Of a DNA stretch of 64,000 nt, positions 8,501-64,000 are shown piece by piece. The stretch spans positions 372,001 through 436,000 of the forward strand of contig JAJLTO010000014.1 of assembly GCA_030568195.1 (NCBI GenBank). Reading direction: 5' to 3'. The notes under the pieces are model-generated. The model did no database searches and was not told where the DNA came from. It saw only the letters and a program-made list of their open reading frames with translations. Numbering within the stretch: the stretch's first letter is position 1; every line of letters starts with the position of its first letter. The stretch is from Dipodascopsis uninucleata var. uninucleata (taxonomy: Eukaryota > Ascomycota > Lipomycetes > Lipomycetales > Lipomycetaceae). A program made the position numbers and the translations under genes.

Positions 8501-9274
8501 GGACGAAGCACTAGATACTGTTCCCACAGGCGCGTATTATGGCGCTTCAAATGTAACAACCCACAATAGCACGAATCTCTATTGCAACAAGTTATATTGC
8601 ATGCCGTTATTAAGCGATTAGTAATCAATATAGGTATAAATTAGTACAGAAAGCTTATGTAACATGGAGATTACTTAATAAGCTATCTCGAAGTCCCTCA
8701 AGGTTTCCCATCACTGAAACAAATTTGTTTAGAGATCAGGTAATCAGGTGTAGAAAATTACACTAAGCGAGAACCTGTAAGGTCAAAATGCCCGTAGCAA
8801 ACGTAAATATATATTAATATCATTCCCTGCAATTCGGTAGAGTCCTTTGACAGATTTGCATGTTGCTGGACTGAAAGCAGTAGACACTAAGGTATCACCG
8901 AAAGTCGTCTAAAGCTGTCCAGAAATTTATTTTTACACTTAACATATCTGTCAGATTCACTTATATACGAGGCACAACTTAGCTACAATTAGCTACTGAT
9001 ATTAAATGTTTCTTACGCGAGAGCAGTTCTTGCTCAGCAATTAGCAAAACGATATATGGATATAATTCTTCTAGATAGTGTTAATATGGTATTCGGGGTA
9101 GTATTTTTTCAACAACTAATTGTGTCGAGCTACTAATTCTATCACCTAGGAGCATTCAAAGTCAAGAATAAGAATGAAGCTGCTTTTATTTCAATTTTGT
9201 AGAATTGTACAAAATGCTTATTAGAATAGTTATATTTCCATCAAAGCATTCAGGTTTGAAGATAGCAAACGTAT
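5549..9274. other. 3.7 kb gene-free stretch
   Basis: Only short, unpatterned frames on either strand; no tRNA, no repeat array and no element ends that I can see. It holds the promoter of the leftward permease gene at its left end. If old genes lie here they are too decayed to recognise by eye. Confidence 0.6.
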
Positions 9275-9719: not shown

Positions 9720-10793
9720 GGCGAATTGATTTAAATTATGTTATAGAGTAATTGAGAATAGTGAACGAGCAGAGGATAAATTTGGTAGAAGTAGATGCAT
9801 ATGTATCAAATTACATTATAAGCAATGCTAGGTGTCGGCTATCAGCTATTGGTTACCTATTTGCGCACTATGAACTGTTTCGGCTGTACTTTAAATGATT
9901 GGTTGACATTCCAGAATATACTACTACGTCTGTGATTAGCTTCTACTAGACAAATGGCTTTTGAGAGAATGTCCAACATCGTATTAGTTTGTGCATACGT
10001 CTATGTTAGCATGCCCAATTTTTTCCCAGCCGTTGAAAGGTATATTTGGGGATAAATTTTAATGAATAGGTTTGCTTTTGCTTACTAGTCTCAACATTGC
10101 TATTATTACTATCTTCTTTTTAGACCTTCGATGAAAAATTTGTGATATTGGATGGAGCATTGGAATGTGTTTATGCTTAGGATTGCGCAAGCTTCAATGT
10201 TGATTTTAGCTTTGTACACTATGCGCTCAGCTGCTTTTATGCCCTTATCTCTTTGTTCTCAACAAACCAAACTATTACTCTTTGCGATGGTGTTCCATCC
10301 GCCAGATTATATAATATAATTCGTTAAGTTCCGTAGAGATCTTATTGCCGTAGCCTGTACACGATCCAGCTTTTATTATGTCTTCAAACCAACCGAGAAA
10401 GCCGTAAATGTGTTGGTCAGACTTCCAACAGACAGCCTTATCGGTTGAGATTGGTTCCTGAAATTTCAGGTCCGAAAGTTTAGAACTCCGCATTCTTGTT
10501 TTCGCGAATATCAAGACGACAGTCTGGTATTGGCTTGTAAAACTCACAGATTCTCGGAGTACAACATATTTAGCTTTCATATTGCTCTGCAGGCGTAGAA
10601 AATAGCTCGGGGCTGCTTGTTGTTCGAAGACCACTAATGGCTGCCCAGGTTAATTAGTGCGGCTGGATGAAAATCTGCTCGAAATGCAGCTTAACTATTC
10701 TGTTCCCGTTAACAACATAACGCAACATTTCACTCGTTTTCCCGCTCTTATCACACTGACTCATTAGCAGTGAATTCGAATCACTTATAGGAT
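9720..10793. other. Intergenic region between divergent genes
   Basis: Shared upstream region of the leftward GFA gene and the rightward CrtC/AttH gene. A 119-codon frame on the minus strand (10275-10634) has no recognisable domain and I do not call it a gene. No clear operator is seen. Confidence 0.5.
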
Positions 10794-11906
10794 ATGATTC
10801 GTTTTATTTTCCAATTGGTCTCGGCCGCAGTGATTCTTTCTGCATTTGCAGGAAACGGTGCGAATGCTACATCCAGTCCGTGTTTGCTGCCGTCAGTGGA
10901 CTACTCCGCACTTGCTCCTTTCCAGAAGAGTCAAGTCATATTCACTTCTTGCAGCGACGGTGCAGATGCTCCTCATGTAGTGCCAATAAATCAAACAACC
11001 TACGACTGGTGGTATTTTGATGTTGTGTCGCCAGATGCAAAGAGCGGTGTCACCTTTATCTTCATGGCGGCATCGGAAATTGGTTTTCCATTCTCTCTCA
11101 ATGTTATTGACTCGTTGTCGGCATTTGTATTCGTCACGGTAAATGGCTCGACAACTATAGGAACACTTCTTTCGACTGGCGCCAATATTACGTCAGCAGG
11201 AAATGGATCATCTGGCTACTGGAAAGGTACCGGATTATCATGGACAGGTAAACCAGACGTGTCTCGATATGTTGTCTCAGTTGACAACTCACTTCTGAGC
11301 CTCAGTGGTACGGTAACATTTGATTCCGTCGCACCAGGTCATTATCCTTGCAGTCCTCTTGTCGCTGGTGTCAGTGAGGAGGCAATGCCGCATCTTGGAT
11401 GGTCAAATGTCATTCCTGACGCAAATTCGGTTGTGGACCTTACTCTGAAGGGCAATAGTGTCAAATTCACTGGATATGGTTACCACGATAAGAATTGGGG
11501 AGATAAATCCTTTGTTTCAGTTGTGAAGTCATGGTATTGGGGTCATGGTCGCTTAGGACCATACTCCGTGGTGTTTTTCGACTCTATTGGAACCGATGGT
11601 AAAGAATACGTTAGTGGATATCTCGCTAAGGATGGCGAGATCCTGTCTACAGTGTGTTCAGGTGTTAGTGTTCGCCCTGTTGGCAAAAATTTTCCACCAA
11701 CGCTCCTTGATGGTGCGCCTACCGCGTTTAGTATATCTTTCGAACTGGAATCTGGTGAGACTGTAGACATTAGTGTGAACATCGTTACTACAGTATCGAA
11801 TGCTGTTCTTACATACCGTTGGCTGGGAACCATGAACGGTACGGTAGGAAAGAGCGAGATGTATAGTGGTGCTTGCACTATGGATTCGTTTGTTTTAAGC
11901 GTATAA
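10794..11906 (+). CDS. Secreted CrtC/AttH-fold protein (hydroxyneurosporene synthase-like; fungal Diels-Alderase relative)
   Basis: A single-exon 370-residue protein. Residues 1-25 form a signal peptide with a probable cut after ANA. The mature part has TTYDWWYFDVVSP near the start and GYHDKNWGDKSF in the second half, the two signature stretches of the AttH/CrtC lipocalin-like double domain. Sites of type N-x-S/T (NQT, NGS, NIT, NGT) suggest glycosylation on the secretory route. Family members include bacterial carotenoid hydratase CrtC and fungal decalin-forming Diels-Alderases of the Fsa2/CghA type. No polyketide synthase is visible in the window, so the substrate is open. Such proteins are common in filamentous fungi and unusual in yeasts. 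Confidence 0.82.
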   Translation: MIRFIFQLVSAAVILSAFAGNGANATSSPCLLPSVDYSALAPFQKSQVIFTSCSDGADAPHVVPINQTTYDWWYFDVVSPDAKSGVTFIFMAASEIGFPFSLNVIDSLSAFVFVTVNGSTTIGTLLSTGANITSAGNGSSGYWKGTGLSWTGKPDVSRYVVSVDNSLLSLSGTVTFDSVAPGHYPCSPLVAGVSEEAMPHLGWSNVIPDANSVVDLTLKGNSVKFTGYGYHDKNWGDKSFVSVVKSWYWGHGRLGPYSVVFFDSIGTDGKEYVSGYLAKDGEILSTVCSGVSVRPVGKNFPPTLLDGAPTAFSISFELESGETVDISVNIVTTVSNAVLTYRWLGTMNGTVGKSEMYSGACTMDSFVLSV

Positions 11907-31172: not shown

Positions 31173-34100
31173 TCAGTTATTCTTCTTAACTAGTACGTTG
31201 CCATCACCAGGCTTCATGGCAAATACATTCGATTCGGGTTCGTGACGGTCTTTTCTTGGTCCATTGAACCACTTCTTGAAATCTAAAATAGATTTTAATG
31301 ACCATACCTTAACTCTCATGTAATAATAGCAAATGAGCATTGCTGCAAAGTTGAATCCGATATAAGCGAACATGAGTCCAAAGTTTCTCCATCTGTATGA
31401 CCATTTGATGTTCACAGCTTCCATAGGTTGAGATTGTAATGTATACTGACAATATTGACAGCCCTCTGTAGCATTTGGATTATTCAAATAACCACCCTTA
31501 TCCTGAATATACTGATCAAAGTAACCCCCACATGATAGACCATTTGGAGGATCAACAACCAAATACTCTTGCGGCTTACAGATGAGTTCTCTTTTATCAA
31601 CGAGCGGAGCAACGAAAGACTGCACGAAGTATGTGAATGGTGATACCTTATACATAAACGTCCAGAAACCAGGCATCAAATCGTAAGGCTGAAGGATACC
31701 GCAGAAAAGCATCATAGCCGCGAAAATATTAGAATTGATCATAGCTGCTGAAGGAACGTTTGGTGAAAAATATAAAATCCACAATCCGTAAGAACAATAA
31801 TATGCCGGGAACATTAATACATATACCAAAAAGTAGTAACCAGCATGTTCAGGAGTTGCAGAGAATCCCGCAGGGAAATAATAACAGCAGAAACATAAGA
31901 ATTGGCAAATTGAACTCCAAATAATTTCCCAACCAGTATGTGACAACAGAAGTGTACTCCAATGGAACGTATTTGAAGCAGATTCTCGGACTTCGAATAA
32001 TTCTCTACTATCATAGGCATAAACGTGCAACTGGTTGATCATTGCAAGTGCAATGATCAGCATCATGAAAGTAGAAAGGAGACCAAACTCGGAATCTGCT
32101 AAAGAGTGATTAACCTTGACAAATGAGAAACCAACGAGCAACGCACACAGAATAGTTTCCAAAAATTTGGCTCTAATATAAATTGGCGATCTCCAGAACT
32201 GAATCATTGTTCTTTTGAAAACAACTCTATACTGATGGAACCAAGGTGTAGCAAACTTCGACTTGAGATCCTCCGCATTTTCCGATACAGGACGGGAAGG
32301 AAGATCATGATGCATCTGTGCAATTTCAGCTGTGAGCTTCTCACACTCAGGAGAATTATTCCATAGATCAGCCCAATCGGCTTCTGTGCTAGCAGTAGCA
32401 CCGGCACCAATACAATTCAATATATATTCTGCAGGATTTTCTGAAACACCACACTTAACACCAGATTGACGCTCAAAATATGATAACATAGTAGCCGAAT
32501 TAGGACCAATGTCACCGCAATAGACCATCTGACCACCCTTCTTCAAAAGCAATAGACGATCGAAAACCTCAAACAAAGTTGCCGATGGCTGATGGATAGT
32601 GCAAAGGATTGCCTGTCCAGAATCAGCGAGTGCTCGCAAAAATTGAACAATAGACCACGCAGACTGCGAATCAAGACCAGAAGTAGGTTCATCAAGGAAA
32701 AGCAAGAGAGAAGGCTTAGCCACCAACTCAACAGCAATAGACAATTTCTTTCTCTGTTCAACGTTCAAGCCACGGCCTGTTTTACCAATGATAGCTTCTG
32801 CATAATTCTGCATACCAAGGAGATCGATAATTTTTTCCACATACTCATATTTCTCCTTTCGAGGAACCGTAAGGGGCTGACGTAAGTCAGCGGCAAATCG
32901 AAGAGACTCTCGTACGGAATATTCAGCTAAATGAAGATCCTGCTGTTGGACATATCCAGTTCGTCGCTTGAACGAAGCATCAACCGGTCTGCCGTTTACA
33001 AGCATATCACCTGTAATAACACCAAAATTGATTCTCTGAGCAAGGACATTAAGTAAGGTAGTCTTACCAGCACCAGACTCACCCATAAGAGCAGTCATAG
33101 TACCTGGCTTAACGAAACCTTGAACATTATTAAGCAACTGACGAGTTGCACCGTCGTATGGGATAACATAATCCAAATGCTGCCATGAAAATATATCACG
33201 ACTTGCTATAACTGCATCAAGATCTACGCCAGGACCATTCAGGGCAAGCATCATTTCATCTCTGCTAGCAACACGACCATCCACAGTTTCTAAACTCTCC
33301 GTTGGTAAATGACCTCGCTTGTAGAGAAGCATATCACCACCACCTTCAACGTTCTTAACAAATTCAGAGAGACCGACATTCATAAGAATAAAGCCAGCAG
33401 TCCACGCAATATTAATTCCAAAGTTTCTCCAGACGTGATGCCACTCAAAATTCCAGTATGCTTTCATATAAGCATCGCCAGAAACATAAGCTTGACCAGC
33501 AATAGATCCAGCAACAGAGCAAATCTTATGAGCAATTGACACGCTATCATATCCGGGGCCACTGGGAACAAGACTAGCACATTCCATGATACGTCCATGC
33601 AACTCTGATCCGATCAAACTTTCGTAACAATATCTCATAGGATTTAACCAATTAATCCACTTAATCCAATGATGCATTAACGGCAACGGAAGAATGAAAC
33701 CAGTGTAAATACAAAGCGCCAAAACCCATAAACCTGCAATAGCATGAGCAGTACCACCATCTCGTGTGATTGCAGCAACAACTTTGAAAATGAATGACAT
33801 ACACTGCTGAACCGTAAGCAAGAAAAGAATGAACATGAAAAAAGCTCCAGCATTATGCTTCAAATGAGGCATCCAATAACTGGTAAGTGCTAGAATAACC
33901 ACAGCAACAACCTTGATAGGAATCTCCGTAACAATTTCCTGTAAAGCTTCAGCTGATTGATGGTACATAGAATAAGACTTATGCTTCAAAATGATAGGAC
34001 GATGAGCAAAAGAATGTGAAATTTCAGCGAGCGAAGTAACAGCGCAGAAAACAAGATCATAAAAGAGAAGACCACCGCGAGAGAATAAACCTCTCGTAGA

Positions 34101-35660
34101 TTCAGGGATATTGTAAAACATAGATCCCACGATGAGACCTTTAATCAAGAAGGATGATAAGTAAATACATTGATAGGTCATCTCTCCCCTGGCTCTCTGG
34201 AAACCGCGAACCATTGAGTATTTTACTTGGTTGAAATAGGAGGCGATATATCTAGATTGTTGTCGCACACCTCTCTGCTGCCTCTGTCTCTTGGAACTGT
34301 CGAGTCGCTCTTTTGTTTCCGTACCACTATGACGTCTACAATAATCGTCATATTCCGCAAGACAGTCTTGATAATCTTGCGAAGCTAACCAGTAGCTCTC
34401 GAATTGTTCCGATGTTTCAGGAACCTTGCCCGTAAATCCTTCTTGTACAAAACGACCATTTGGATCCGTGATAGAAGTCAAAAACTCAGGTGTAGTCATT
34501 CGAGGGGGCTTATAATATCCCATCCGTTCAAAATATGCCTGCGCCTTCTGTGCAGGACCAAAGTAAATCTGCTTACCAAGGTAAATAACAGTCACCTTAT
34601 CAAATAATTCGTAAATATTTTGACCTGCTTGATAGATGGCAACCAATGCAGAGTTGTTCAGCATATTTGTCGCAGTACGAATTGCCTGAGAAAATTCTAA
34701 AGCAGTCGAGGCATCGAGACCACGGGTAGCATTATCCCATGCATATATGGAAGCGTTACATGACAGGGCTTCAACGATAGAGACACGCTTTCTTTCACCA
34801 CCGGACACTCCACGGACGAAATCATTGCCGACATTAGTGTTGTAAGTATGTCGCAAGCCGAAAACAGTACACCATAAATCCCTCATAATACTAATATACT
34901 TCGAACGGGGAAGACTGTCTATACGAGTCCTTGGAGTTTTCATTTTAAGAGCGAAGTCAACTGTATTCTTCACAGTGATCATAGGAAAATGAGTGTCCAA
35001 CTCAGGATTGTAGACGACATATCCCTTATAATTCTCCATCATTTCTTTCTGAGGTACACCGCTGTAGTTAATATCACCTTCAACGCCCAATAGTTCACTA
35101 GTTTCGCCAGTCAAGCACTTAAGAAGTGTAGAACAACCGGCTCCAGGACGACCGACGACAAAGCACATTTCACCTGCCTCGACAGTACCCGTGAAGCCAG
35201 TGATGATTTGACGGGTTGGCTTGCGATCCTTGCGAAATAATTTAACAGGAAAACTAAAGAAGCCTCGAACCATCTCTTCAACAGAGGGGCCATAGGCGGC
35301 AGATACGTCGACACCTGTAGCTGTTAGATCTTTAAATGCAACGCCTGCGTCAGATGTTACAATTCCTTGCTCTTCAGACCTTGCATGAAGATAGTCCAAC
35401 AATACTCTCAAATCGAAATTTGATACGTCGACCTCAAACTTATCTAAGTCCCGCTTTGGTAATCTAGCTATGGAACGCGCGTAAGATTGAATACGTTCGA
35501 TTGCATCCTCGCTTGAAAGCACTCTGGACAGCTCATCAGCATAGATATCAGTAGCATTTTGATGCTCAACATCCTCAATGCTTTGAGGATGTCTACTCAA
35601 TGTGTCTTCATCTGACGATCGATCGCCAGACGAACTCTCAGATTTATATTTACTAGCCAT
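31173..35660 (-). CDS. Full-size PDR-type ABC transporter (Snq2/Cdr-like multidrug pump)
   Basis: Intronless, 1495 residues, order NBD1-TMD1-NBD2-TMD2 as in fungal PDR (ABCG) pumps. NBD1 has the degenerate Walker A GRPGAGCST (170-178, Cys where Lys is usual), the signature VSGGERKRV (285-293) and the PDR-specific NATRGLDAST (310-319). NBD2 has a normal Walker A GESGAGKTT (860-868), the altered signature LNVEQRKKLSIA and LDEPTSGLDSQS. The asymmetry, one canonical and one degenerate site, is a PDR hallmark. The protein exports hydrophobic drugs or toxic metabolites at the plasma membrane using ATP. A paralog starts its visible part at 64000; the two share tracts of near-identity. Confidence 0.97.
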   Translation of the reverse strand: MASKYKSESSSGDRSSDEDTLSRHPQSIEDVEHQNATDIYADELSRVLSSEDAIERIQSYARSIARLPKRDLDKFEVDVSNFDLRVLLDYLHARSEEQGIVTSDAGVAFKDLTATGVDVSAAYGPSVEEMVRGFFSFPVKLFRKDRKPTRQIITGFTGTVEAGEMCFVVGRPGAGCSTLLKCLTGETSELLGVEGDINYSGVPQKEMMENYKGYVVYNPELDTHFPMITVKNTVDFALKMKTPRTRIDSLPRSKYISIMRDLWCTVFGLRHTYNTNVGNDFVRGVSGGERKRVSIVEALSCNASIYAWDNATRGLDASTALEFSQAIRTATNMLNNSALVAIYQAGQNIYELFDKVTVIYLGKQIYFGPAQKAQAYFERMGYYKPPRMTTPEFLTSITDPNGRFVQEGFTGKVPETSEQFESYWLASQDYQDCLAEYDDYCRRHSGTETKERLDSSKRQRQQRGVRQQSRYIASYFNQVKYSMVRGFQRARGEMTYQCIYLSSFLIKGLIVGSMFYNIPESTRGLFSRGGLLFYDLVFCAVTSLAEISHSFAHRPIILKHKSYSMYHQSAEALQEIVTEIPIKVVAVVILALTSYWMPHLKHNAGAFFMFILFLLTVQQCMSFIFKVVAAITRDGGTAHAIAGLWVLALCIYTGFILPLPLMHHWIKWINWLNPMRYCYESLIGSELHGRIMECASLVPSGPGYDSVSIAHKICSVAGSIAGQAYVSGDAYMKAYWNFEWHHVWRNFGINIAWTAGFILMNVGLSEFVKNVEGGGDMLLYKRGHLPTESLETVDGRVASRDEMMLALNGPGVDLDAVIASRDIFSWQHLDYVIPYDGATRQLLNNVQGFVKPGTMTALMGESGAGKTTLLNVLAQRINFGVITGDMLVNGRPVDASFKRRTGYVQQQDLHLAEYSVRESLRFAADLRQPLTVPRKEKYEYVEKIIDLLGMQNYAEAIIGKTGRGLNVEQRKKLSIAVELVAKPSLLLFLDEPTSGLDSQSAWSIVQFLRALADSGQAILCTIHQPSATLFEVFDRLLLLKKGGQMVYCGDIGPNSATMLSYFERQSGVKCGVSENPAEYILNCIGAGATASTEADWADLWNNSPECEKLTAEIAQMHHDLPSRPVSENAEDLKSKFATPWFHQYRVVFKRTMIQFWRSPIYIRAKFLETILCALLVGFSFVKVNHSLADSEFGLLSTFMMLIIALAMINQLHVYAYDSRELFEVRESASNTFHWSTLLLSHTGWEIIWSSICQFLCFCCYYFPAGFSATPEHAGYYFLVYVLMFPAYYCSYGLWILYFSPNVPSAAMINSNIFAAMMLFCGILQPYDLMPGFWTFMYKVSPFTYFVQSFVAPLVDKRELICKPQEYLVVDPPNGLSCGGYFDQYIQDKGGYLNNPNATEGCQYCQYTLQSQPMEAVNIKWSYRWRNFGLMFAYIGFNFAAMLICYYYMRVKVWSLKSILDFKKWFNGPRKDRHEPESNVFAMKPGDGNVLVKKNN

Positions 35661-39215: not shown

Positions 39216-39857
39216 ATGCTCGAAGGCGCCACAAATACCGAATTATGTCGCAAAAAAGAGCCAATGCGATCGAAAAAGTATATATGCACCTTAGATGGAT
39301 GCGATAAAAGGTACACTAGACCGAGCCTTCTAGAGCAACACATCAGAAGCCATACTGATGAGCGTCCTTTTAAATGTGATATTCCAAACTGTTCAAAGGC
39401 CTTCAGACGGGTTTCCCACTTACGCGTGCATCTTCTAAGTCACTCATCACTAAAGCCACACGTCTGTGAGATTTGTAGGAAGAGTTTCAGTACGAATCAG
39501 CAGATTACGCGTCATATGAATACGCATTTTCCTAGCATACCGTGCACTTACGAAGAATGCGATGAGAAATTTTTCAGACACAGTCAGTTAAGGGATCATG
39601 TACTCGAGCGTCATATTCAGAACGAAATTATGACAGCTAGTAGTGAGGGCGAGCAAATTTCGCCAGACGTTTTCTACGGCTTCCGCGAAGGAGTAGACTA
39701 TACTGATTTAGCGGGACCAAATGGTCTGGAAGAAAAGTGGCTATGCCAGGAGACAAACTGTCAAACTCACGCTGGGTGGGATTCTCTTGGTATTTTGATG
39801 AACCACTACGATTATCGTCATCAATTTGTGCCTGAATCATTGTTTGATCTTCTATAG
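39216..39857 (+). CDS. FZF1: Fzf1-like C2H2 zinc-finger transcription factor (sulfite/nitrosative stress regulator)
   Basis: 213 residues from the ATG at 39216; a second ATG at 39264 would also precede finger 1. Five C2H2 fingers: 22-46, 52-76, 82-104, 108-133 and, after a 40-residue acidic linker, 176-202. Text such as [15 protein letters not shown] and [20 protein letters not shown], and the C-terminal [14 protein letters not shown], match S. cerevisiae Fzf1 (five fingers; NRPSLLQQH, DHYDHTHAFIPETL). Known biology: Fzf1 activates SSU1, YNR064C, YHB1 and DDI2/3. Here the SSU1-like and YNR064C-like genes are the next two genes, with Fzf1-type sites between them. Finger 4 follows finger 3 directly, as in TFIIIA, to which fingers 1-4 are also similar. 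A derived TFIIIA paralog is the alternative, less likely given finger 5 and context. Confidence 0.85.
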
Positions 39858-39980
39858 AAATGTGCGTCTGGAATCTTTACTTTGGAAAACAACATAATTT
39901 CGATTCGATCGATAGATAATTAGTATTTCCTCCAATTACAGTATAATAATATTGAAGGTGTTCGAATTAAAAATATTCCA

Positions 39981-40853
39981 TTAAATTCGACTAGAAAGAA
40001 ATTCGATAATGTCTTGGGCAATCTTGACGACATACTCTTCAAGGGCAAAGTGTCCGGTGTTGTAGTACTTCACAACAATATCCTTAACATCACGTTTATA
40101 GGCTTCTGCGCCAGCTACTGTAAATGTGAAATCATTTTTACCCCAAGTCAGGAGAACTGGTACGTTAGACATACGGAAATATTCATGAAACTTGTCATAG
40201 ATAGCGACATTGTTTTGATAATCATAAAACAGAGATAGCTGTTTTTCGATTTGGCCAGGTCTCGCCAAAAGTGCCTCATCAAGTAAATAGACAGTTGGCT
40301 CGACGGCATTTGGATTTGTAGTACCGTCTAGATACATTTTTCGAATAGAGAGATAATCATGAAGATAGTCTGTAAGAATTTCAACGTATTTTGCGTTACT
40401 TTCGCCTGCATTCCAATACTCCTTAACTGGAGTCCAGAAACGATCATCAAGTCCCTCTTTGTATGCATTTCCATTCTGAGTTATAATAGCTTTGACCTTG
40501 GTTGGGTTATTCAGAGCAAGACGGTATCCGACTGGAGCACCATAATCGAAAACGTACATTGCAAATTTTTGTAGGTCGATCTTATTAATAAAATATTCGA
40601 CCGATTTATACAGATTGTCAAACTTGTAGTCGTAACCTTCTTCCACTTCCGTAAATCCAAATCCTGGAAGATCAGGCGCGATAACATAGTAATGTGGAGC
40701 TAAGAGAGTAATTAAATATCTGAACATATGTGAAGAAGACGGAAAACCATGAAGCAAGAGTATCGCAGGATTGCTGCGGTTTCCAGCTTCGCGATACCAC
40801 ATCTGTACTCCATCCTCGAGTTTTACTTGATTAAAATTTGGAATGACGCTCAT
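39981..40853 (-). CDS. Alpha/beta hydrolase, epoxide hydrolase-like (YNR064C-like)
   Basis: A 290-residue intronless protein, the length I recall for S. cerevisiae Ynr064c. The oxyanion-hole motif HGFPSSSHMFR starts at 35. The nucleophile is Asp103 in YVFDYGAPVG, as in epoxide hydrolases and haloalkane dehalogenases; serine esterases differ here. The acid is probably Asp241 (WGKNDF) and the base His268 (TGHFALEEY). The likely reaction is hydrolysis of an epoxide or other electrophile through an alkyl-enzyme ester; the substrate is unknown. The gene is convergent with FZF1 (123 bp between stops) and divergent from SSU1. CTATCA elements lie 148-478 bp upstream of its ATG, consistent with Fzf1 control as in S. 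cerevisiae. Confidence 0.88.
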   Translation of the reverse strand: MSVIPNFNQVKLEDGVQMWYREAGNRSNPAILLLHGFPSSSHMFRYLITLLAPHYYVIAPDLPGFGFTEVEEGYDYKFDNLYKSVEYFINKIDLQKFAMYVFDYGAPVGYRLALNNPTKVKAIITQNGNAYKEGLDDRFWTPVKEYWNAGESNAKYVEILTDYLHDYLSIRKMYLDGTTNPNAVEPTVYLLDEALLARPGQIEKQLSLFYDYQNNVAIYDKFHEYFRMSNVPVLLTWGKNDFTFTVAGAEAYKRDVKDIVVKYYNTGHFALEEYVVKIAQDIIEFLSSRI

Positions 40854-41000
40854 TGGTACTCAATTGATCTCTTACTTATATATAGCACACAGCCTGTTTC
40901 ATATAGAAACACTGATATCCGATAGTAGAGCTTGAGTTTATTTATAGATATCTAATAGATGGTAGACTACTAGCATTTATGATATTTACCTACGTGTATC

Positions 41001-41330
41001 CTATCAATGGAATACTATCACTGAAATTTTGTCCCAGAAATAGTACATATATTCCGCTGATCTACTATTATTAAGATGCCGATACACATGTGCTGCATAA
41101 TTCCCAAACAGGCAGTTTTATAGTCATGCAGTCTGAATTATGGAACATGATCTAGTCATAAAACCTCGAATGTAACCTATCACCATAAATTTGCATTGTG
41201 TTATTTCACCCAAGAAATGTATCCTATCACGAAAAATAAGTTGAAAATGGTAATCTATCACCAAAAGCCTGAACTTAGAGAATGGCGCCGCACGTATATA
41301 AATTTCACTCTCCACTTCCATTAATGATAG
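41001..41330. promoter_or_regulatory. Cluster of six CTATCA (Fzf1-type) elements in a divergent promoter
   Basis: CTATCA occurs at 41001, 41015, 41177, 41224 and 41255 on the plus strand and at 41325-41330 on the minus strand. Four of them extend to a CTATCAC core, and three share an A-rich tail (CTATCACCATAAAT, CTATCACGAAAAAT, CTATCACCAAAAG). The core of the S. cerevisiae Fzf1 element is CTATCA followed by a pyrimidine. Six copies in 330 bp is far above the one per 2 kb or so expected by chance on both strands. The cluster is close to the hydrolase start and about 0.9-1.25 kb from SSU1. No further copies were found between 41331 and 42251. Confidence 0.7.
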
Positions 41331-42251
41331 TAACCCAAATATTCTAGCAAACTACCAGATATTCTGTAAATGCTCACATTATATTCCATTAGGAATATTT
41401 CCTCGAATCGCGCAACACAGAAAAATAGCGCTAGCTTCTAAATAGGTGTCGGAAATGATCTAGATCGCATATATTAACCTTTGAGAGAGAATTTCTCGCC
41501 ATACTAGAGTAATATAATATTTAGAAAAATTAATAGCAGTCACTGCTGTACTGGACAGTATGGATTCAATTGTAGACATTCTGTAGCCACCAGTGATCTG
41601 TTGTAGATAAGTTACGGAGCACCAGCACAGAGATCGACCACGTCATGTCTCAACGAATATAATGTCAATCGTACCTAAATAACTACTGTAGTTGTACAAA
41701 GTTATATCAGATACTCTAGCTTCGGAAATGCCTTGAAGAATACATCAGTTTAATCAGTGACGACGTATTCAAGGTGAAGCCGTTGAGTAGGAGTTCAGAG
41801 TAGGTCAGTAAACACCGTCCAAAGCAAGTGAATCAGGCAAAGTTTATTCTAACTGACTAATAATAAGGAATTACAATAATAACTTTTGGAAGTAGGTTAC
41901 ATTCTATATAAAAGTCGTCTTTACTGAAGACATACGTTGGCCCGTACTATCTCATACAGGAGCATTTTAACGCTATTTCATACTTAGCAAATATACCTTA
42001 TACCGTTGCATCATAGATATAATAGATGAGCATTTATTAGAAGAGAATTGCTAATTCCAGCCATAACTCTTGAGATATTAGTTTGTTTCAACCAAATTAG
42101 TTTCTCGTGGCTTAGATCGACTTCTAATTATTTATATGACCATTCAGCCATACGTGCCACGATTAAATAAGAGTTAGAACTCTAGCACATATCCTTAGCT
42201 ATTGAATTCACATATTTGTATACTAGAATATATTGTTAGTAATCTAGTACA
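41331..42251. other. SSU1 5' flank
   Basis: No gene is seen. A TATATAAAAG box at 41905-41914 lies about 340 bp before the SSU1 start, rather far for a core promoter TATA but possible with a long leader. Confidence 0.45.
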
Positions 42252-43550
42252 ATGGCAATCAACCTGCTGACTGGCATCCAGATGTGGGATCTAATAGCAA
42301 ACTTTAGTCCAGTGTAAGATAAAGAGTCATATTGACATATGCTAAAGTCGCGCAGGAATTACTAACTTAATGGAGATGGTTTGGAAGCTCAATGGGAATG
42401 GGTGTTTCAGCTCTAATTCTCATTGAGTACCCTTTTGAAGCGCGTTGGTTGAAGTGTATCGGCATAGTTTACTGGAGCGTGGCTGCATTATTGATGATAT
42501 TCCTCAGTGTATTATTTATTTTGCGTCATATTATCTATAAAGACACCTTGATAAAGATATGGAAAAACCCACTTCAGGCTCCTTTATGTGGCTATATACC
42601 TATGGCCCTGGGATCTATAATAGTTTGCATCACCTCGATTTTTGGAGAGAGAGCTATTTGGATTAGCTATGTTCTTTGGTGGGTAGATGTAATATTATCG
42701 GTGTATTGCACTTGGATTATACTATTTGTCGAATTCGCTTTTCACGATAGAACTGAGCCGAACCAACTGAATGCTGTGATTCTCTTGCCGATTGTTGCTA
42801 TGGTTGTCAATTCTACTACTGGGGCAGCTATTGTGAAAGACCTTCCTCTGAACTGGCAGCCACATGTTATGGTCATATCATTATTGGAATGGGGAAATGG
42901 TGAGCTACTTGCATTTGCTACAACCTGTATCTACCTTTGGCGATTATACACAAGCAACTTACCAACCAGCCATGCAATGATTACTTGTTTCATTCCAATC
43001 GGCCCGCTAGGACAAGGGGCCTATGGCATTATCCTAAATGGACAGAACATACAAAACTATTTTGCTAGGGTTTACAGCACCGACGCAAGCGAATACGAAA
43101 GCTACTCATACCTATGCATTGGCATCGCACTAGTACTGGTTGGCTTTGCTTCCTTTTGGATATTTTGTGCAGTCTCAGGCTGTATATTCTTTCCTCCACG
43201 AAAATTTGGTATTGGATGGTGGGCACTGACTTTTCCTTTGGTATGTGATGGATTCATCATAAACAGCAGCGCCTATTTTTTATTCACAATTGACTAACGT
43301 CTCATAGGGAACATACGGATTGGCTACTACTGAACTAGGACGTTTGCTCAATACAGAGAGTTTCAAAGTTGTCGGTGCCATCGTGGGAACTACGGTGACA
43401 TTAATCGCGTTGATTCTATTCTTTACCACATTGTATTATACGTTCCTTACAGACAATATAGTAGAAGCTCTAAAAAATGAAGCGACAATTGTATTGAAAC
43501 AGTCGGGTGAGAAATGCGCGACATCTGAAGCAGCGGCTCTAGATGTTTAA
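42252..43550 (+). CDS. SSU1: Ssu1-type sulfite efflux pump (TDT family), three exons
   Basis: Exons are 42252-42313, 42376-43240 and 43308-43550; introns are 62 and 67 nt, both with a CTAAC branch site nine bases from the acceptor. The product is 389 residues. Exon 1 supplies MAINLLTGIQMWDLIANFSP, and the first junction makes VWFGSSMGMGVSALIL, the conserved TM1 of the tellurite/dicarboxylate transporter fold. The second junction makes TFPLGTYGLATTELGRLL, the late SLAC1/Ssu1 signature. About ten membrane helices. Ssu1 exports sulfite at the plasma membrane and gives sulfite tolerance. The neighbouring FZF1 is the family's known activator. The protein is shorter than S. cerevisiae Ssu1 (458) mainly in the tails. 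Confidence 0.93.
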
Positions 43551-44344: not shown

Positions 44345-45740
44345 TTATCTATATTCTCGGCCATGTTTGCAATGTCGGGACTCTCATCATCAAAATATTT
44401 TGCTTTCTTTTCTAGCAGAATATATCTAGTCCCAACAATAAATAGATAGACCACAAAAGACTTTGATTAGCCAGAAGCAGGAATAGAACATGTAATATTT
44501 TCAGCAGATGACCTCAAACGCAATTGAATTAACATATTGGTTGAAAAATAGAGTAGCCGTTTGGCAAATATTAAGCGGAGTGAGACCTTTGGCGTGGAGG
44601 CCGTATGGAGGATTTGTGTATATATGATGAGAGTAGATCTATTCCCACATTAGTGAAATTCACGACGTATATGCTATAAACTTACTTAATTTGTATAATA
44701 GAAGCCATATACAAAAATCATTACTACGGCGGGAATACCAATGCCACTCGTTTTTGCAATTTCGTAGCGTGTGGAAAAGATAGTCCACAATGTGAAAGAT
44801 GTCAGCATACCCACAGCGGCAGCCATATATAGTCGCCCACCACCAGACCTGTCAGCACAAAAACAGAAGTATGTGTTGATGATTAGTTAAAATTGGTAAG
44901 GCATACATTAATGATCAACTGAGTGTTTGAACTTTTAGTGCAAATACTATTACGAACCTGTACCAAATAGTATGAAAGCAAACCATTCCGGACCATTGAT
45001 TAAAGACACCAACCAGGCGTCTTCTGTTTTCCTCTAGTTCTGGAAAAATCTAACAATTTTTTCGAGTGGTTTGTGTCTTGGTCCAGCGTGATGGTCACAA
45101 GGTCCATTAAAGTCAATGCAAATAAACTCGAAAGATTCGTCGCCATTCGCATGAAATTTCACCAGTATATTACGAGCATCCTCGGTCTTGTTCTCGCTTA
45201 TTAAGTACCGTTGGCTTTCTGGTGTACTCCTAACAAAGAAAGAAACCTTACAGTAAAAATTACATGGACAGAGAAGGCGTTCTCCATAATCAGCTGTTCT
45301 GTAATGTTAAAGTTAGTAATGTTACAAAATTCGCGTAGTTTGATAGCATAGAATACCAGAATCTTCAGAATCCCGTTGGTAGTCAAAGCAGCAACCAGTA
45401 TCGTCATTTTACGGCAGAGAGTATTACAGCAATTACTCAACCTTAATATGAGCAATCTCACAATTAGCAAAGACGAAGTCGTAACAACAGGCTGATTACC
45501 GAATCCCAGTAAAAATTTAGCGGCTTGAAGATGCCAAAGTTCCTAGCGCCTGCTTGAGGGCCAATACCGAGCAACATTAAGTTGATCCAAAAATTGGACA
45601 CTGCATTCGATCATATTTATCATAAAACATGGAAGGAACGTGAGCTCAATCAAAGAACCAATACTCATGCTACAATTGAAGAGACCGAACATGGATCCAT
45701 GGGGATTGTTAAAATATAGGTACAAGGTTAGGTTCATTTG
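44345..45740 (-). pseudogene. Broken lactose-permease-like sugar transporter (MFS sugar porter)
   Basis: Minus-strand fragments in order match fungal Lac12-type sugar porters: GLFNCSMSIGSLIELTF (TM4 region), SENKTEDARNILVKFHANGDESF (the central loop that follows the ESPRWL motif), RSGGGRLYMAAAVGMLTSFT with STRYEIAKTSGIGIPAVV (TM8-9), and FNQYVNSIAFEVI then KYYMFYSCFW (TM11-12). Stops and frame changes lie between them, and one of the usual Arg/Gly motif positions has changed (DRSGGGRL for DRFGRRPL). I infer an old loss of function. The N-terminal part may extend to about 46660 but is too worn to place. Confidence 0.75.
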
Positions 45741-54386: not shown

Positions 54387-55779
54387 ATGTCCTTTTTCTT
54401 TGCTCCACCGAAACCAAAAAGTCTCCTTGGATATCACAGATATCTTTCTCCTACGGCTGGTGTGAAAGTATCTCCATTATGTCTGGGAGCAATGAATTTT
54501 GGAGAGAAATGGTAAGAATTTGGCATGCTTCGTGATGCTGAGAGAGCTTCAATTAACTAATTATATCAAGGAAATCTATGATGGGAGAATGCGACAAGGA
54601 CCAATCGTTCGCTATTTTGGATGAGTTCTATTATCTTGGTGGTAACTTCATTGATACGTATGTGTGGTTTTTGTATTTTGCCGTGGACATCTTACTAATT
54701 AATTATGATAGAGCTAACAACTACCAAGACGAAGATTCAGAGACCTGGATTGGTGAATGGATGAAGAAGAGGAATAATAGAGACCAGTTAGTGTAAGTAT
54801 ATAGAAATTCTAAAATCGCGTCGTGATTTAACAATGTTTGTATTATATAGTATCGCTACAAAATATACATCTGGATATCGTTCAGCTGCAAGGAATGAGG
54901 AGCCGATCCAGTCAAATTTTGTTGGGAACTCTATGAAGTCTATGCATGTTTCTGTGGACGCAAGCTTAAAAAAGCTTCAGACCGATTACATAGATCTCCT
55001 ATATGTTCACTGGTGGGATTTTACAACTTCTGTTGAGGAGGTGATGTATGGCTTAAACAGTCTTGTATCGTCAGGGAAGGTATTATACCTAGGCATATCC
55101 GACACACCTGCTTGGGTAGTAGTAAAGGCAAATGATTATGCTCGTGCAAATGGCTTCCGCCCTTTCTCGGTTTATCAGGGAAAATGGAATGCTAGCTATA
55201 GAGATATGGAGAGGGAGATTGTTCCTATGTGTAGAGATCAAGGCATGGGCATTGCACCGTGGGCACCGTTAGGAGGCGGCAAGTTCAAGAGTGCAGAGGC
55301 TCGAGAATCACATGAACTGGGATCTGCCAGAGGAAGCGACTTGTCTGAATCGGATATAAAGATTAGCGATGCATTGGAAGAAGTTGCTAAGGAGAAAGGA
55401 ACGAACCTGCATGCAGTGGTAAGTGACTGTGAGTATATCTATGAGTAAATATTTGCTAATAATTGACAAACAGGCATTGGCTTATATTATGCATAAAGCG
55501 CCATTCGTATTCCCTATTGTTGGCCAGCGTAAAGTGGAGCATTTGAAAGCTAATGTTGCTTCGTTAAGTGTCAAGCTGACCCCCGAAGACGTGGACAAAA
55601 TTGACTCTGCAGTTCCTTTTGATCCAGGCTTTCCAATGTCATTCCTATTCAGAGACATGAAGTATGATTTGACTCTCGGAGCTCATGACGTATGGCTCAC
55701 AAAGCTATCAGCACACGTTGATGCTCCACCTCAACCTCAACCTTTTGTGGTGCGAAGTGCCAGTGATGCAGATCCATGA
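54387..55779 (+). CDS. Aldo-keto reductase, aryl-alcohol dehydrogenase type (AKR9/AAD-like), five exons
   Basis: Exons are 54387-54511, 54571-54657, 54712-54792, 54851-55418 and 55474-55779, with four introns of 54-59 nt. The spliced frame has 388 residues, the length of yeast AAD proteins. The catalytic tetrad is Asp70 and Tyr75 (NFIDTANNYQDE), Lys102 (ATKYTSGY) and His151 (YVHWWDF). The NADPH-binding end shows [19 protein letters not shown]. It reduces aromatic or aliphatic aldehydes to alcohols in the cytosol with NADPH; the precise substrate is open. Introns 1-3 cut conserved motifs, and each junction restores them exactly, which makes the model strong. Four introns in one metabolic gene is unusual for a budding yeast. 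Confidence 0.95.
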
Positions 55780-61597: not shown

Positions 61598-64000
61598 TTA
61601 GTTCTTCTTCTTTTTCAGAAAATTGCCATCGCCAGGCTTCATAGCAAATACATTCGATTCGGGTTCGTGACGGTCTTTTCTTGGTCCATTGAACCACTTC
61701 TTGAAATCTAAAATAGATTTTAATGACCACACTTTAACTCTCATGTAATAATAGCAAATAAGCATTGCTGCAAAGTTGAATCCAATATAAGCGAACATGA
61801 GTCCAAAGTTTCTCCATCTGTACGACCATTTGATGTTCACAGCTTCCATAGGTTGAGCTTGCAGAGTATACTCGCAATATTCACAACTCTGCGTAGCATT
61901 TGGATTATTCAAATAACCACCGTTATCCTGAATATATCGATCAAAGTAACTCTCACACGATAGCCCATTTGGAGGATCAACAACAAAGAACTCTCCCGTT
62001 CTACAGATAAGCTGTCTCTTATCAACGAGAGGAGCAACGAAAGACTGCACAAAGTATGTGAATGGTGATACCTTATACATAAACGTCCAGAAACCAGGCA
62101 TCAAATCGTAAGGCTGAAGGATACCACAGAAAAGCATCATAGCGGCGAAGACATTCGAGTTGATCATTGATGCAGATGGCACATTTGGTGAAAAATATAA
62201 AATCCACAATCCGTAAGAACAATAATATGCCGGGAACATACAAACGTATACCAAAAAGTAGTAACCAGCATGCTCAGGAGTCGCGGAGAACCCACCGGGG
62301 AAATAATAACAGCAGAAACATAAGAATTGGCAAATTGAACTCCAAATAATTTCCCAACCAGTATGTGACAACAGAAGTGTACTCCAATGGAACGTATTTG
62401 AAGCAGATTCTCGGACTTCGAATAATTCTCTACTATCATAGGCATAAACGTGCAACTGGTTGATCATTGCAAGTGCAATAAGAAGCATCATGAAAGTAGA
62501 AAGTAGACCAAACTGAGCATCTGATAGGGAGTGATTAACCTTGACAAATGAGAAACCAACGAGCAACGCACACAGAATAGTTTCCAAAAATTTGGCTCTA
62601 ATATAAACAGGAGATCTCCAGAATTGGATCATTGTTCTCTTGAACACGATCTTATATTGATGGAACCAAGGTGTAGCAAACTTCGACTTGAGATTCTCCG
62701 CATTGTCCGATACAGGACGGGAAGCAAGTTCATGATGCAGCTGGGCAATTTCAGCTGTGAGCTTCTCACACTCAGGAGAATTATTCCATAGGTCAGCCCA
62801 ATCTGCTTCTGCACTTGCAGTAGCACCGGCACCAATACAGTTCAATATATACTCTGCAGGATTCTCTGAAACACCACACTTAACACCAGATTGACGCTCA
62901 AAGTATGATAACATAGTAGCCGAATTAGGACCAATGTCACCGCAGTAGACCATTTTACCACCCTTCTTCAAAAGCAATAGACGATCGAAAACCTCAAACA
63001 AAGTTGCCGATGGCTGATGGATAGTGCAGAGGATTGCCTGTCCAGAATCAGCGAGTGCTCGCAAAAATTGAACAATAGACCACGCAGACTGCGAATCAAG
63101 ACCAGAAGTAGGTTCATCAAGGAAAAGCAAGAGAGAAGGCTTAGCCACCAACTCAACAGCAATAGACAATTTCTTTCTCTGTTCAACGTTCAAGCCACGG
63201 CCTGTTTTACCAATGATAGCTTCTGCATAATTCTGCATACCAAGGAGATCGATAATTTTTTCCACATACTCATATTTCTCCTTTCGAGGAACCGTAAGGG
63301 GCTGACGTAAGTCAGCGGCAAATCGAAGAGACTCTCGTACGGAATATTCAGCTAAATGAAGATCCTGCTGTTGGACATATCCAGTTCGTCGCTTGAACGA
63401 AGCATCAACCGGTCTGCCGTTTACAAGCATATCACCTGTAATAACACCAAAATTGATTCTCTGAGCAAGGACATTAAGTAAAGTAGTCTTACCAGCACCA
63501 GACTCACCCATAAGAGCAGTCATAGTACCTGGCTTAACGAAACCTTGTACATCATTAAGCAACTGACGAGTTGCACCGTCGTATGGAATAACATAATCCA
63601 AATGCTGCCATGAAAATATATCACGCTTAGCTATAACTGTTTCAAGATCTACATCAGGACCATTGAGAGAAAGCATCATCTCTTCTCTGCTAGCAACACG
63701 ACCGTCCACAGATTCCATGCCTTTCTTTGGTAAATGACCTCGCTTGTAGAGAAGCATATCACCACCACCTTCAACGTTCTTAACAAATTCAGAGAGACCG
63801 ACATTCATAAGAATAAAGCCAGCAGTCCACGCAATATTAATTCCAAAGTTTCTCCAGACATGCTTCCACTCAAAGTTCATATATGCTTTCATGTAAGCGT
63901 CACCAGAAACATAAGCTTCACCAGCAACTGCACCAACAACTGTACAGATTTTATTTGCGATAGGAACATCCTCATAACCAGGACCACTGGGAACCAGACT
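61598..64000 (-). CDS. PDR-type ABC transporter, C-terminal half (5' end outside window)
   Basis: The frame is open to the right edge, so about 800 residues of a roughly 1495-residue pump are visible: end of TMD1, NBD2 and TMD2. NBD2 has Walker A GESGAGKTT, signature LNVEQRKKLSIA and LDEPTSGLDSQS, identical to the pump at 31173-35660. Differences cluster in the linker before NBD2 (for example KKGMESVDG for TESLETVDG), in the segment after NBD2 and in the last extracellular loop (RTGEFFVVDPP for KPQEYLVVDPP). The function should be drug or metabolite efflux at the plasma membrane. Same strand as its paralog, offset about 30,425 bp. Confidence 0.96.
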   Translation of the reverse strand, partial: SLVPSGPGYEDVPIANKICTVVGAVAGEAYVSGDAYMKAYMNFEWKHVWRNFGINIAWTAGFILMNVGLSEFVKNVEGGGDMLLYKRGHLPKKGMESVDGRVASREEMMLSLNGPDVDLETVIAKRDIFSWQHLDYVIPYDGATRQLLNDVQGFVKPGTMTALMGESGAGKTTLLNVLAQRINFGVITGDMLVNGRPVDASFKRRTGYVQQQDLHLAEYSVRESLRFAADLRQPLTVPRKEKYEYVEKIIDLLGMQNYAEAIIGKTGRGLNVEQRKKLSIAVELVAKPSLLLFLDEPTSGLDSQSAWSIVQFLRALADSGQAILCTIHQPSATLFEVFDRLLLLKKGGKMVYCGDIGPNSATMLSYFERQSGVKCGVSENPAEYILNCIGAGATASAEADWADLWNNSPECEKLTAEIAQLHHELASRPVSDNAENLKSKFATPWFHQYKIVFKRTMIQFWRSPVYIRAKFLETILCALLVGFSFVKVNHSLSDAQFGLLSTFMMLLIALAMINQLHVYAYDSRELFEVRESASNTFHWSTLLLSHTGWEIIWSSICQFLCFCCYYFPGGFSATPEHAGYYFLVYVCMFPAYYCSYGLWILYFSPNVPSASMINSNVFAAMMLFCGILQPYDLMPGFWTFMYKVSPFTYFVQSFVAPLVDKRQLICRTGEFFVVDPPNGLSCESYFDRYIQDNGGYLNNPNATQSCEYCEYTLQAQPMEAVNIKWSYRWRNFGLMFAYIGFNFAAMLICYYYMRVKVWSLKSILDFKKWFNGPRKDRHEPESNVFAMKPGDGNFLKKKKN

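What the first reader, a model, noticed from the sequence alone, without database searches (positions are those of the whole stretch)
39216..43550. FZF1, a YNR064C-like hydrolase and SSU1 form a three-gene regulator-plus-targets cluster
Directly seen: a five-finger Fzf1-like factor, an Asp-nucleophile alpha/beta hydrolase of 290 residues and an Ssu1-type sulfite pump are consecutive, with no other gene between. Established knowledge (from memory): in S. cerevisiae Fzf1 activates SSU1 and YNR064C, and these three genes are on different chromosomes. Inference: this yeast keeps, or has assembled, the regulon as a physical module for sulfite/nitrosative/electrophile stress, in the manner of a small fungal gene cluster. 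It also suggests that the hydrolase acts on a sulfite- or NO-linked toxic product.
Basis: partly seen in the sequence, partly recalled or inferred. Interest (0 to 1): 0.85.

Follow-up and report, generated by a model that had tools for sequence, protein, structure and literature searches.

The report
Sulfite-defence regulator beside its target genes
In an early-branching yeast, the genes for a stress regulator, an epoxide-hydrolase-like enzyme and a sulfite-pump-like protein sit side by side, with six copies of the regulator's known core binding word packed between the enzyme and the pump, which suggests a regulatory unit that is scattered over several chromosomes in baker's yeast.

Summary
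The window matches Dipodascopsis uninucleata (Lipomycetes) and holds, consecutively, FZF1 (39216-39857, +), a YNR064C-type hydrolase (39981-40853, -) and an SSU1-type SLAC1/TehA transporter (42252-43550, +, two introns). The zinc-finger gene is Fzf1-like, not TFIIIA: a separate TFIIIA-like gene lies on another contig, 11 of 12 base-reading residues of fingers 1-3 match solved Fzf1, and the odd fifth finger (C-X4-C-X14-H-X4-H) is present. The hydrolase groups with Saccharomyces YNR064C (support 100).

The 1,398-bp divergent intergenic between hydrolase and SSU1 holds six sites with the core of the published Fzf1 site (G-N4-CTATCA): 0.26 expected, reached in 0 of 20,000 shuffles. The SSU1 paralogue about 395 kb away has no CTATCA upstream, and a flavohaemoglobin-like gene has one, without the G. 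So this is probably a local Fzf1 regulon. Against it: the sites match only the core of the consensus, and they lie 0.9-1.25 kb from the SSU1 start codon.

Whether the linkage is ancestral or derived, and whether the genes respond to sulfite or NO, could not be tested. The idea of a sulfite- or NO-linked hydrolase substrate is unsupported.

The parts
39216..39857 (+). FZF1-like five-finger C2H2 transcription factor, 213 aa, no intron
39267..39530 (+). codons of fingers 1-3 (residues 18-105); base-reading residues RSLQ/RSHV/TQQR against RSLQ/RCHV/TQQR in solved Fzf1 (9e6e)
39534..39626 (+). codons of finger 4 (residues 107-137), directly after finger 3
39735..39845 (+). codons of finger 5 (residues 174-210; C177, C182), unusual C-X4-C-X14-H-X4-H spacing and HYD..H.F.PE shared with solved Fzf1
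   Evidence: spacing read from the sequences
39981..40853 (-). YNR064C-type alpha/beta hydrolase (epoxide hydrolase-like), 290 aa; HGFP 35-38, D103, D241, H268
40939..40946 (-). TATA-box-like TATAAATA facing the hydrolase
   Evidence: consensus match only; others lie at 40875-40884
40996..41006 (+). G-N4-CTATCA site 1 (GTATCCTATCAA)
41010..41020 (+). G-N4-CTATCA site 2 (GAATACTATCAC)
41172..41182 (+). G-N4-CTATCA site 3 (GTAACCTATCAC)
41219..41229 (+). G-N4-CTATCA site 4 (GTATCCTATCAC)
41250..41260 (+). G-N4-CTATCA site 5 (GTAATCTATCAC)
41295..41302 (+). TATA-box-like TATATAAA facing SSU1, just past site 5
   Evidence: consensus match only
41325..41335 (-). G-N4-CTATCA site 6 (GGTTACTATCAT)
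41905..41914 (+). second TATA-box-like sequence facing SSU1 (TATATAAAAG)
   Evidence: consensus match only
42252..42313 (+). SSU1-like exon 1, absent from the NCBI model P0197
42314..42375 (+). predicted intron 1 (GTAAGA...TACTAAC...GAG)
   Evidence: paralogue has an intron at the same place
42376..43240 (+). SSU1-like exon 2
43241..43307 (+). predicted intron 2 (GTATGT...GACTAAC...TAG)
   Evidence: P0197 agrees; paralogue has an intron at the same place
43308..43550 (+). SSU1-like exon 3

Best explanation
This is a compact Fzf1 regulon in Dipodascopsis uninucleata. The Fzf1-like protein binds, through fingers 1-3, an array of G-N4-CTATCA sites in the divergent promoter between the hydrolase and SSU1. 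When a toxic chemical activates it, it switches on the epoxide hydrolase-like enzyme and the sulfite-pump-like transporter together. Shown here: gene identities, order and orientation, near-identity of the base-reading residues to solved Fzf1, and the excess of core sites. Inferred: binding, activation, the inducer, and transport of sulfite. Direct control is more likely for the hydrolase (sites 148-480 bp upstream of its start) than for SSU1 (about 920-1,250 bp upstream of its start codon, unless transcription starts near the TATA-like box at 41295).
For: Gene content and order. Fzf1 identity: the PDB chain named FZF1 (9e6e) aligns at fingers 1-3 (103.2 bits), weakly at finger 4 (7.2) and at finger 5 (20.8); the chain named TFIIIA (8ffz) aligns at fingers 1-4 (98.8) with no match to the C-terminal finger. 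Counting the strings printed, 11 of 12 base-reading residues equal Fzf1, against 8 of 12 for 8ffz and 7 of 12 for this genome's own TFIIIA-like gene, a separate 499-aa frame on C3. Hydrolase: 54% to a Saccharomyces YNR064C-like protein, and one of 20 rows split from 100 others with support 100; the six named rows of the 20 are all yeasts. Sites: six G-N4-CTATCA in the 1,398-bp intergenic, mean 0.26 and maximum 4 in 20,000 dinucleotide shuffles; they are 6 of the 13 in the 64-kb window. CTATCAC is the most enriched of 1,163 heptamers there (Poisson tail 4.6e-5, about 0.05 after correction for 1,163) and CTATCA second of 853 hexamers. Genome-wide, GTAWYCTATCAM has 26 matches (19 for the reversed control): 4 lie within 266 bp here, no other two within 40 kb of each other. 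The published Fzf1 site is NGNNNNCTATCANTTNN, and SSU1, YNR064C, YHB1 and DDI2/3 are its S. cerevisiae targets (PMC11442136, passages); YGSMNMCTATCAYTTYY is quoted in PMC3375221 (passages).
Against: On the whole published 17-base consensus the six sites reach only 9-12 of 16 specified positions, while 19 other places in the window reach 13 or 14: only the core matches. A plain CTATCA count is not raised in the window as a whole (51 against 49.1); in the intergenic alone it is 6 against 1.47, reached in 74 of 20,000 shuffles. The paired pattern CTATCAC-8-60-CTATCAC occurs 14 times in the genome, as does its reversed control; two of the 14 overlap here, and another overlapping couple lies on C15. 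With a matrix made from the six, a place at 8701 outranks site 6. Finger 1-3 identity alone does not separate the families (54.7% to Fzf1, 55.8% to the own TFIIIA). The sites are far from the SSU1 start. No expression data. GTAWYCTATCAM was taken from the sites themselves, so speaks only to clustering.
Confidence: 0.7

Rival explanations
1. The three genes are neighbours, but Fzf1 directly controls only the hydrolase; SSU1 has its own promoter (TATA-like box at 41905) and is a bystander or responds to another factor.
For: Nearest site is 148 bp from the hydrolase start but about 920 bp from the SSU1 start codon. No good further site between 41345 and 42300 (best 10.3 bits against 16-24 for the six). 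The SSU1 paralogue on C14 has no CTATCA on either strand in the 1.8 kb between the preceding frame and its exon 2, so this transporter family need not be under Fzf1 in this genome.
Against: Five of six sites point towards SSU1 and a TATA-like box at 41295 faces SSU1 directly after them. In S. cerevisiae SSU1 is a CS2-bearing Fzf1 target (PMC11442136, passages).
Confidence: 0.25
2. Chance neighbourhood in a transporter-rich contig end; the CTATCA words are unrelated to Fzf1.
For: The cluster lies about 40 kb from the end of contig C14 among ABC, MFS, P450 and reductase genes. Only the core of the consensus matches.
Against: Three genes known elsewhere as regulator and targets are consecutive, and the regulator's core word with G at -5 is 6 against 0.26 expected in the one shared promoter.
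Confidence: 0.05
3. The zinc-finger protein is a TFIIIA fragment or paralogue with no stress role.
For: Fingers 1-4 align well to TFIIIA (98.8 bits). Over fingers 1-3 it is as similar to the own TFIIIA (55.8%) as to Fzf1 (54.7%), and finger 4 has more identities to TFIIIA (11 of 28, 12 of 32) than to Fzf1 (8 of 32), although the alignment scores are close (54, 46, 52).
Against: A separate TFIIIA-like gene with nine or more fingers by eye; Fzf1-like base-reading residues and fifth finger here.
Confidence: 0.04

Closest known systems
Fzf1 regulon of Saccharomyces cerevisiae (FZF1, SSU1, YNR064C, YHB1, DDI2/3)
   Same: Regulator and two targets are homologous; core site G-N4-CTATCA present upstream.
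   Different: Genes are dispersed in S. cerevisiae (FZF1 on VII, YNR064C on XIV, SSU1 on XVI; recalled) and adjacent here. No G-N4-CTATCA upstream of the flavohaemoglobin-like gene on C21; a DDI2/3 relative was not found, but that search rang in no control genome. Six core sites instead of the one CS2 probe described for SSU1.
Fungal gene clusters with a cluster-resident transcription factor (recalled as a kind)
   Same: Regulator next to functionally linked genes that probably share its control.
   Different: The regulator belongs to a family known as acting on scattered genes, and the enzyme/pump pair is a stress response, not a pathway with known successive steps.
Ylehd, epoxide hydrolase of Yarrowia lipolytica (PMC5605520, passages)
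   Same: Asp-nucleophile alpha/beta hydrolase with HGFP; that enzyme is xenobiotic-inducible.
   Different: The two sequences were not compared directly; no activity is known for the window protein.

Membership tests
Fzf1 (yeast five-finger activator) | Fingers 1-3 with the Fzf1 DNA-reading residues | tested here: met
   11 of 12 positions identical to the PDB chain named FZF1 (strings, counted by me)
Fzf1 (yeast five-finger activator) | Finger 5 (activation domain) with C-X4-C-X14-H-X4-H spacing | tested here: met
   domain 3; spacing read from both sequences; C248/C253 and role of ZF5 from PMC12843318 (abstract and passages)
Fzf1 (yeast five-finger activator) | Finger 4 resembling the Fzf1 repressor finger | tested here: inconclusive
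   8 of 32 identical to Fzf1 ZF4 (score 52), 11 of 28 to 8ffz TFIIIA ZF4 (54), 12 of 32 to the own TFIIIA (46)
Fzf1 (yeast five-finger activator) | Distinct from the genome's TFIIIA | tested here: met
   TFIIIA-like 499-aa frame on C3, matching 8ffz over residues 49-325
Fzf1 (yeast five-finger activator) | Groups with Fzf1 in a tree of yeast FZF1 and TFIIIA proteins | not tested
   no other yeast Fzf1 sequence was seen among the 76 hits
Fzf1 (yeast five-finger activator) | Binds CS2 and activates SSU1 and YNR064C | not testable with these tools
   only core sites seen
YNR064C epoxide hydrolase | Groups with yeast YNR064C rather than bacterial or filamentous relatives | tested here: met
YNR064C epoxide hydrolase | Asp-His-Asp triad and aromatic HGXP | tested here: met
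   H35, G36, D103, D241 and H268 invariant in 23 rows, HGFP here; aromatic X separates epoxide hydrolases from dehalogenases (PMC5605520, passages)
YNR064C epoxide hydrolase | Epoxide hydrolase activity | not testable with these tools
   best solved sequence matches are haloalkane dehalogenases; the fold model resembles lipases, dehalogenases and epoxide hydrolases at 17-23% identity
Ssu1 sulfite pump | SLAC1/TehA fold family | tested here: met
   PF03595 E 1.9e-64
Ssu1 sulfite pump | Nested with Ssu1 rather than malate-type transporters | tested here: inconclusive
   In an 18-row set (100) with Ogataea proteins, one named SSU1 by UniRef; the kept rows named C4-dicarboxylate/malic acid transport protein by JGI (P0260, P0275) lie in another group, but filamentous and Mucor proteins named SSU1 also lie outside; S. 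cerevisiae Ssu1 was not identified among the rows
Ssu1 sulfite pump | Exports sulfite | not testable with these tools
   no call bears on it

The most novel reading that the evidence does not exclude
The Fzf1 regulon began as one physical cluster, regulator, enzyme, pump and a shared array of CTATCA sites, at the base of the budding yeasts, and was later dispersed and expanded (to YHB1 and DDI2/3) in the Saccharomyces lineage while the DNA word and its reading residues stayed the same.
Probability: 0.3. Interest if true: 0.8.

Novelty: new variant of a known kind. Interest (0 to 1): 0.62.

Why it matters
S. cerevisiae Fzf1 switches on seemingly unrelated genes in response to sulfite, NO, cyanamide and MMS (PMC11442136 and PMC12843318, passages), and why they belong together is unclear. 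A yeast of another class (Lipomycetes; early-branching by recall) in which regulator, hydrolase and pump are physically joined says that hydrolase and pump may form an old functional pair. It also suggests that regulator and DNA word were matched before most budding yeasts split. It gives a small testable module with cis and trans parts within 4.3 kb. The contrast is sharp because FZF1 was reported as not identified in Saccharomycodes ludwigii and Brettanomyces bruxellensis (PMC7903802, passages).

Tried and rejected
TFIIIA identity: rejected, though no tree of yeast FZF1 proteins could be built. Broken SSU1 gene (in-frame stop at 43295): rejected, the stop lies in an intron. Site array as copies of one long repeat: mostly rejected; flank matches are 4-9 of 20 upstream and 4-12 of 25 downstream, but one pair (41001/41015) reaches 15 of 25. 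A genome-wide regulon: the flavohaemoglobin-like gene on C21 has one CTATCA upstream, without G at -5; a weak second globin match on C13 has five CTATCA in 6 kb, none with G at -5; the SSU1 paralogue on C14 has none upstream; a DDI2/3 relative was not found, but that search rang in no control genome. Whole published consensus as a scan: did not single out the locus. Paired-site genome scan: 14 places, control 14. Literature: in the searches (open-licence library) no listed title, abstract start or passage read describes this cluster; I read found passages of seven papers, none whole, so this is not proof of absence. A paper on the Fzf1-DNA crystal structure was not found.
Full report
What is there. 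The window is C14:372001-436000 of a 16.2-Mb, 25-contig genome. Its zinc-finger protein differs at one residue from an NCBI protein named FZF1 of Dipodascopsis uninucleata, class Lipomycetes, Saccharomycotina. Three consecutive genes lie at 39216-43550: FZF1 (+), an alpha/beta hydrolase (-), and an SLAC1/TehA-family transporter (+). FZF1 and the hydrolase converge, 123 bp apart. The hydrolase and the transporter diverge, 1,398 bp apart.

Transporter model. The open frame 42392-43297 ends in a stop inside an intron. Removing 42314-42375 (GTAAGA...TACTAAC...GAG) and 43241-43307 (GTATGT...GACTAAC...TAG) gives 389 residues. The NCBI model P0197 is identical from residue 27 on and so lacks exon 1; a paralogue on the same contig, P0198, is 63% identical over 99% of the query and is interrupted at both intron places. 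A tree of 73 rows places the window protein with P0198 (99), inside a six-row set of Lipomycetaceae (99) and an 18-row set with Ogataea proteins (100). Proteins named SSU1 also occur outside that set, S. cerevisiae Ssu1 was not identified among the rows, and several branches are long. So 'SSU1-type' is safe; 'orthologue of Ssu1' is probable but not shown.

Regulator identity. The PDB chain named FZF1 (9e6e) aligns at fingers 1-3 with 103.2 bits, weakly at finger 4, and with 20.8 bits at the C-terminal finger; the chain named TFIIIA (8ffz) aligns at fingers 1-4 with 98.8 bits and lacks the C-terminal match. The tool gives no species; both are S. cerevisiae by recall, and the numbering of 9e6e fits the finger-5 cysteines C248 and C253 of PMC12843318 (passages). 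Three zinc-finger protein 568 chains score higher than Fzf1 over the whole protein, as repeated fingers can do. By identity over fingers 1-3 the case is open: 54.7% to Fzf1, 55.8% to this genome's own TFIIIA. By the residues at helix positions -1, 2, 3 and 6 it is clear: RSLQ/RSHV/TQQR here, RSLQ/RCHV/TQQR in Fzf1, RSIE/KSHR/TQQR in 8ffz, RCRE/RSHA/TQHR in the own TFIIIA. The own TFIIIA is a 499-aa frame on C3 that matches 8ffz over residues 49-325. Finger 5 has the same unusual spacing, C-X4-C-X14-H-X4-H, in both Fzf1 proteins (read).

Hydrolase identity. 54% to a Saccharomyces YNR064C-like protein, 59% to a Sugiyamaella epoxide hydrolase. In a 120-row tree it is one of 20 rows split from the other 100 with support 100. 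The six named rows of the 20 are Saccharomyces, Lachancea, Ogataea and Sugiyamaella; the organism-named rows of the 100 are filamentous fungi and bacteria; many rows are unnamed (the 120 are the best listed of 8,000 scored). H35, G36, D103, D241 and H268 are invariant in 23 aligned rows, with HGFP at 35-38. An aromatic residue in HGXP marks epoxide hydrolases rather than dehalogenases (PMC5605520, passages). Against that, the nearest solved sequences are haloalkane dehalogenases (E 1.5e-19), NCBIfam's two best are haloalkane dehalogenase models far below their cut-offs, and a confident fold model (pLDDT 95.1) resembles lipases, dehalogenases and epoxide hydrolases at 17-23% identity. The substrate stays open.

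The promoter. In S. cerevisiae the Fzf1 site is NGNNNNCTATCANTTNN (PMC11442136, passages) or YGSMNMCTATCAYTTYY (quoted in PMC3375221, passages); CTATCA alone is also quoted (PMC8631656, passages). Between hydrolase and SSU1, at 40996-41335, lie six CTATCA words, five on the + strand, all six with G at -5. For that intergenic, G-N4-CTATCA is 6 against 0.26 expected and 0 of 20,000 dinucleotide shuffles reach six; CTATCA alone is 6 against 1.47 (74 of 20,000); CTATCAC is 4 against 0.25 (2 of 20,000). Without prior choice, CTATCAC is the most enriched heptamer of 1,163 (Poisson tail 4.6e-5, about 0.05 when corrected) and CTATCA the second hexamer of 853. The whole window has 13 G-N4-CTATCA. Genome-wide, the pattern GTAWYCTATCAM, taken from the sites, has 26 matches (19 for the reversed control), of which four fall here within 266 bp and no other two lie within 40 kb. 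Against this, the flanking TT and pyrimidines of the S. cerevisiae consensus are not kept, and on the full consensus the sites score 9-12 of 16 while 19 other places in the window score 13-14. Site flanks are mostly at chance likeness, one pair excepted, so the array is not a plain tandem repeat.

Geometry. The sites are 148-480 bp upstream of the hydrolase start and about 920-1,250 bp upstream of the SSU1 start codon. TATA-like boxes face outwards on both sides of the five + strand sites (40939 towards the hydrolase, 41295 towards SSU1); others lie at 40875-40884, 41905 and 42129 (plain matches in AT-rich DNA, no test of excess). Control of the hydrolase is therefore the safer claim. Control of SSU1 needs a far site or a long 5' leader.

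Specificity within the genome. The SSU1 paralogue on C14 has no CTATCA in the 1.8 kb between the preceding frame and its exon 2. A flavohaemoglobin-like gene on C21 has one upstream, without the G at -5. No second FZF1-like protein (next best of 26 matches is the TFIIIA-like gene) and no second close hydrolase (the only other match is 35% over 98 residues) were found. So the array marks this locus, and the regulon may be confined to it.

Mechanism. Best reading: Fzf1 fingers 1-3 bind the array, finger 5 activates, and the hydrolase and pump are induced together by reactive chemicals. In S. cerevisiae finger 4 represses finger 5 until chemical stress, and NO induces YNR064C strongly (PMC12843318, passages). 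Here finger 4 follows finger 3 directly and has slightly more identities to TFIIIA finger 4 than to Fzf1 finger 4, with near-equal scores, so repression by finger 4 may be a later addition (inference, weak).

Known or new. The regulator, its word and its targets are known in S. cerevisiae. The physical cluster was not described in what I saw of the papers listed (an open-licence library; titles, abstract starts and passages). FZF1 was reported as not identified in S. ludwigii and B. bruxellensis (PMC7903802, passages). I rate it a new variant of a known kind: a known dispersed regulon found as a cluster with a site array. Whether it is ancestral cannot be decided without other fungal genomes.

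Noticed in passing
42252-42375: The NCBI model of the SSU1-like gene (P0197, 363 aa) starts downstream of exon 1; the window supports a 62-bp first exon and a 62-bp intron.
   Followed up: yes
L057 4866-6153 (G000:C14:18365-19652): A 63% identical SSU1 paralogue about 395 kb away near the other end of contig C14, interrupted at the same two intron places and without CTATCA upstream.
   Followed up: partly
L058 4029-5156 (G000:C11:202528-203655): A third, diverged (39%) SSU1-family gene without a stop in the aligned part; long branch in the tree.
   Followed up: no
39534-39626: Finger 4 of this Fzf1 has no long linker before it and is about as close to TFIIIA finger 4 as to Fzf1 finger 4, which hints that Fzf1 arose from the first fingers of a TFIIIA copy.
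   Followed up: partly
31173-35660 and 61598-64000: Two PDR-type ABC transporter genes on the same strand, by eye near-identical in their C-terminal halves, lie on either side of the cluster; the second runs out of the window.
   Followed up: no
10791-11906: A Diels-Alderase-like gene (PF24137 with PF25581), a kind I recall from fungal secondary metabolism, in a yeast.
   Followed up: no
44900-45310, - strand: Short broken frames that by eye resemble a decayed sugar transporter; Pfam gave no match for 45037-45306.
   Followed up: no
54792-55779: Aldo/keto reductase split over two overlapping frames: an intron or a broken gene.
   Followed up: no
8701-8719: One near match to the site matrix outside the cluster (18.8 bits, above site 6), not linked to a gene here.
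   Followed up: no
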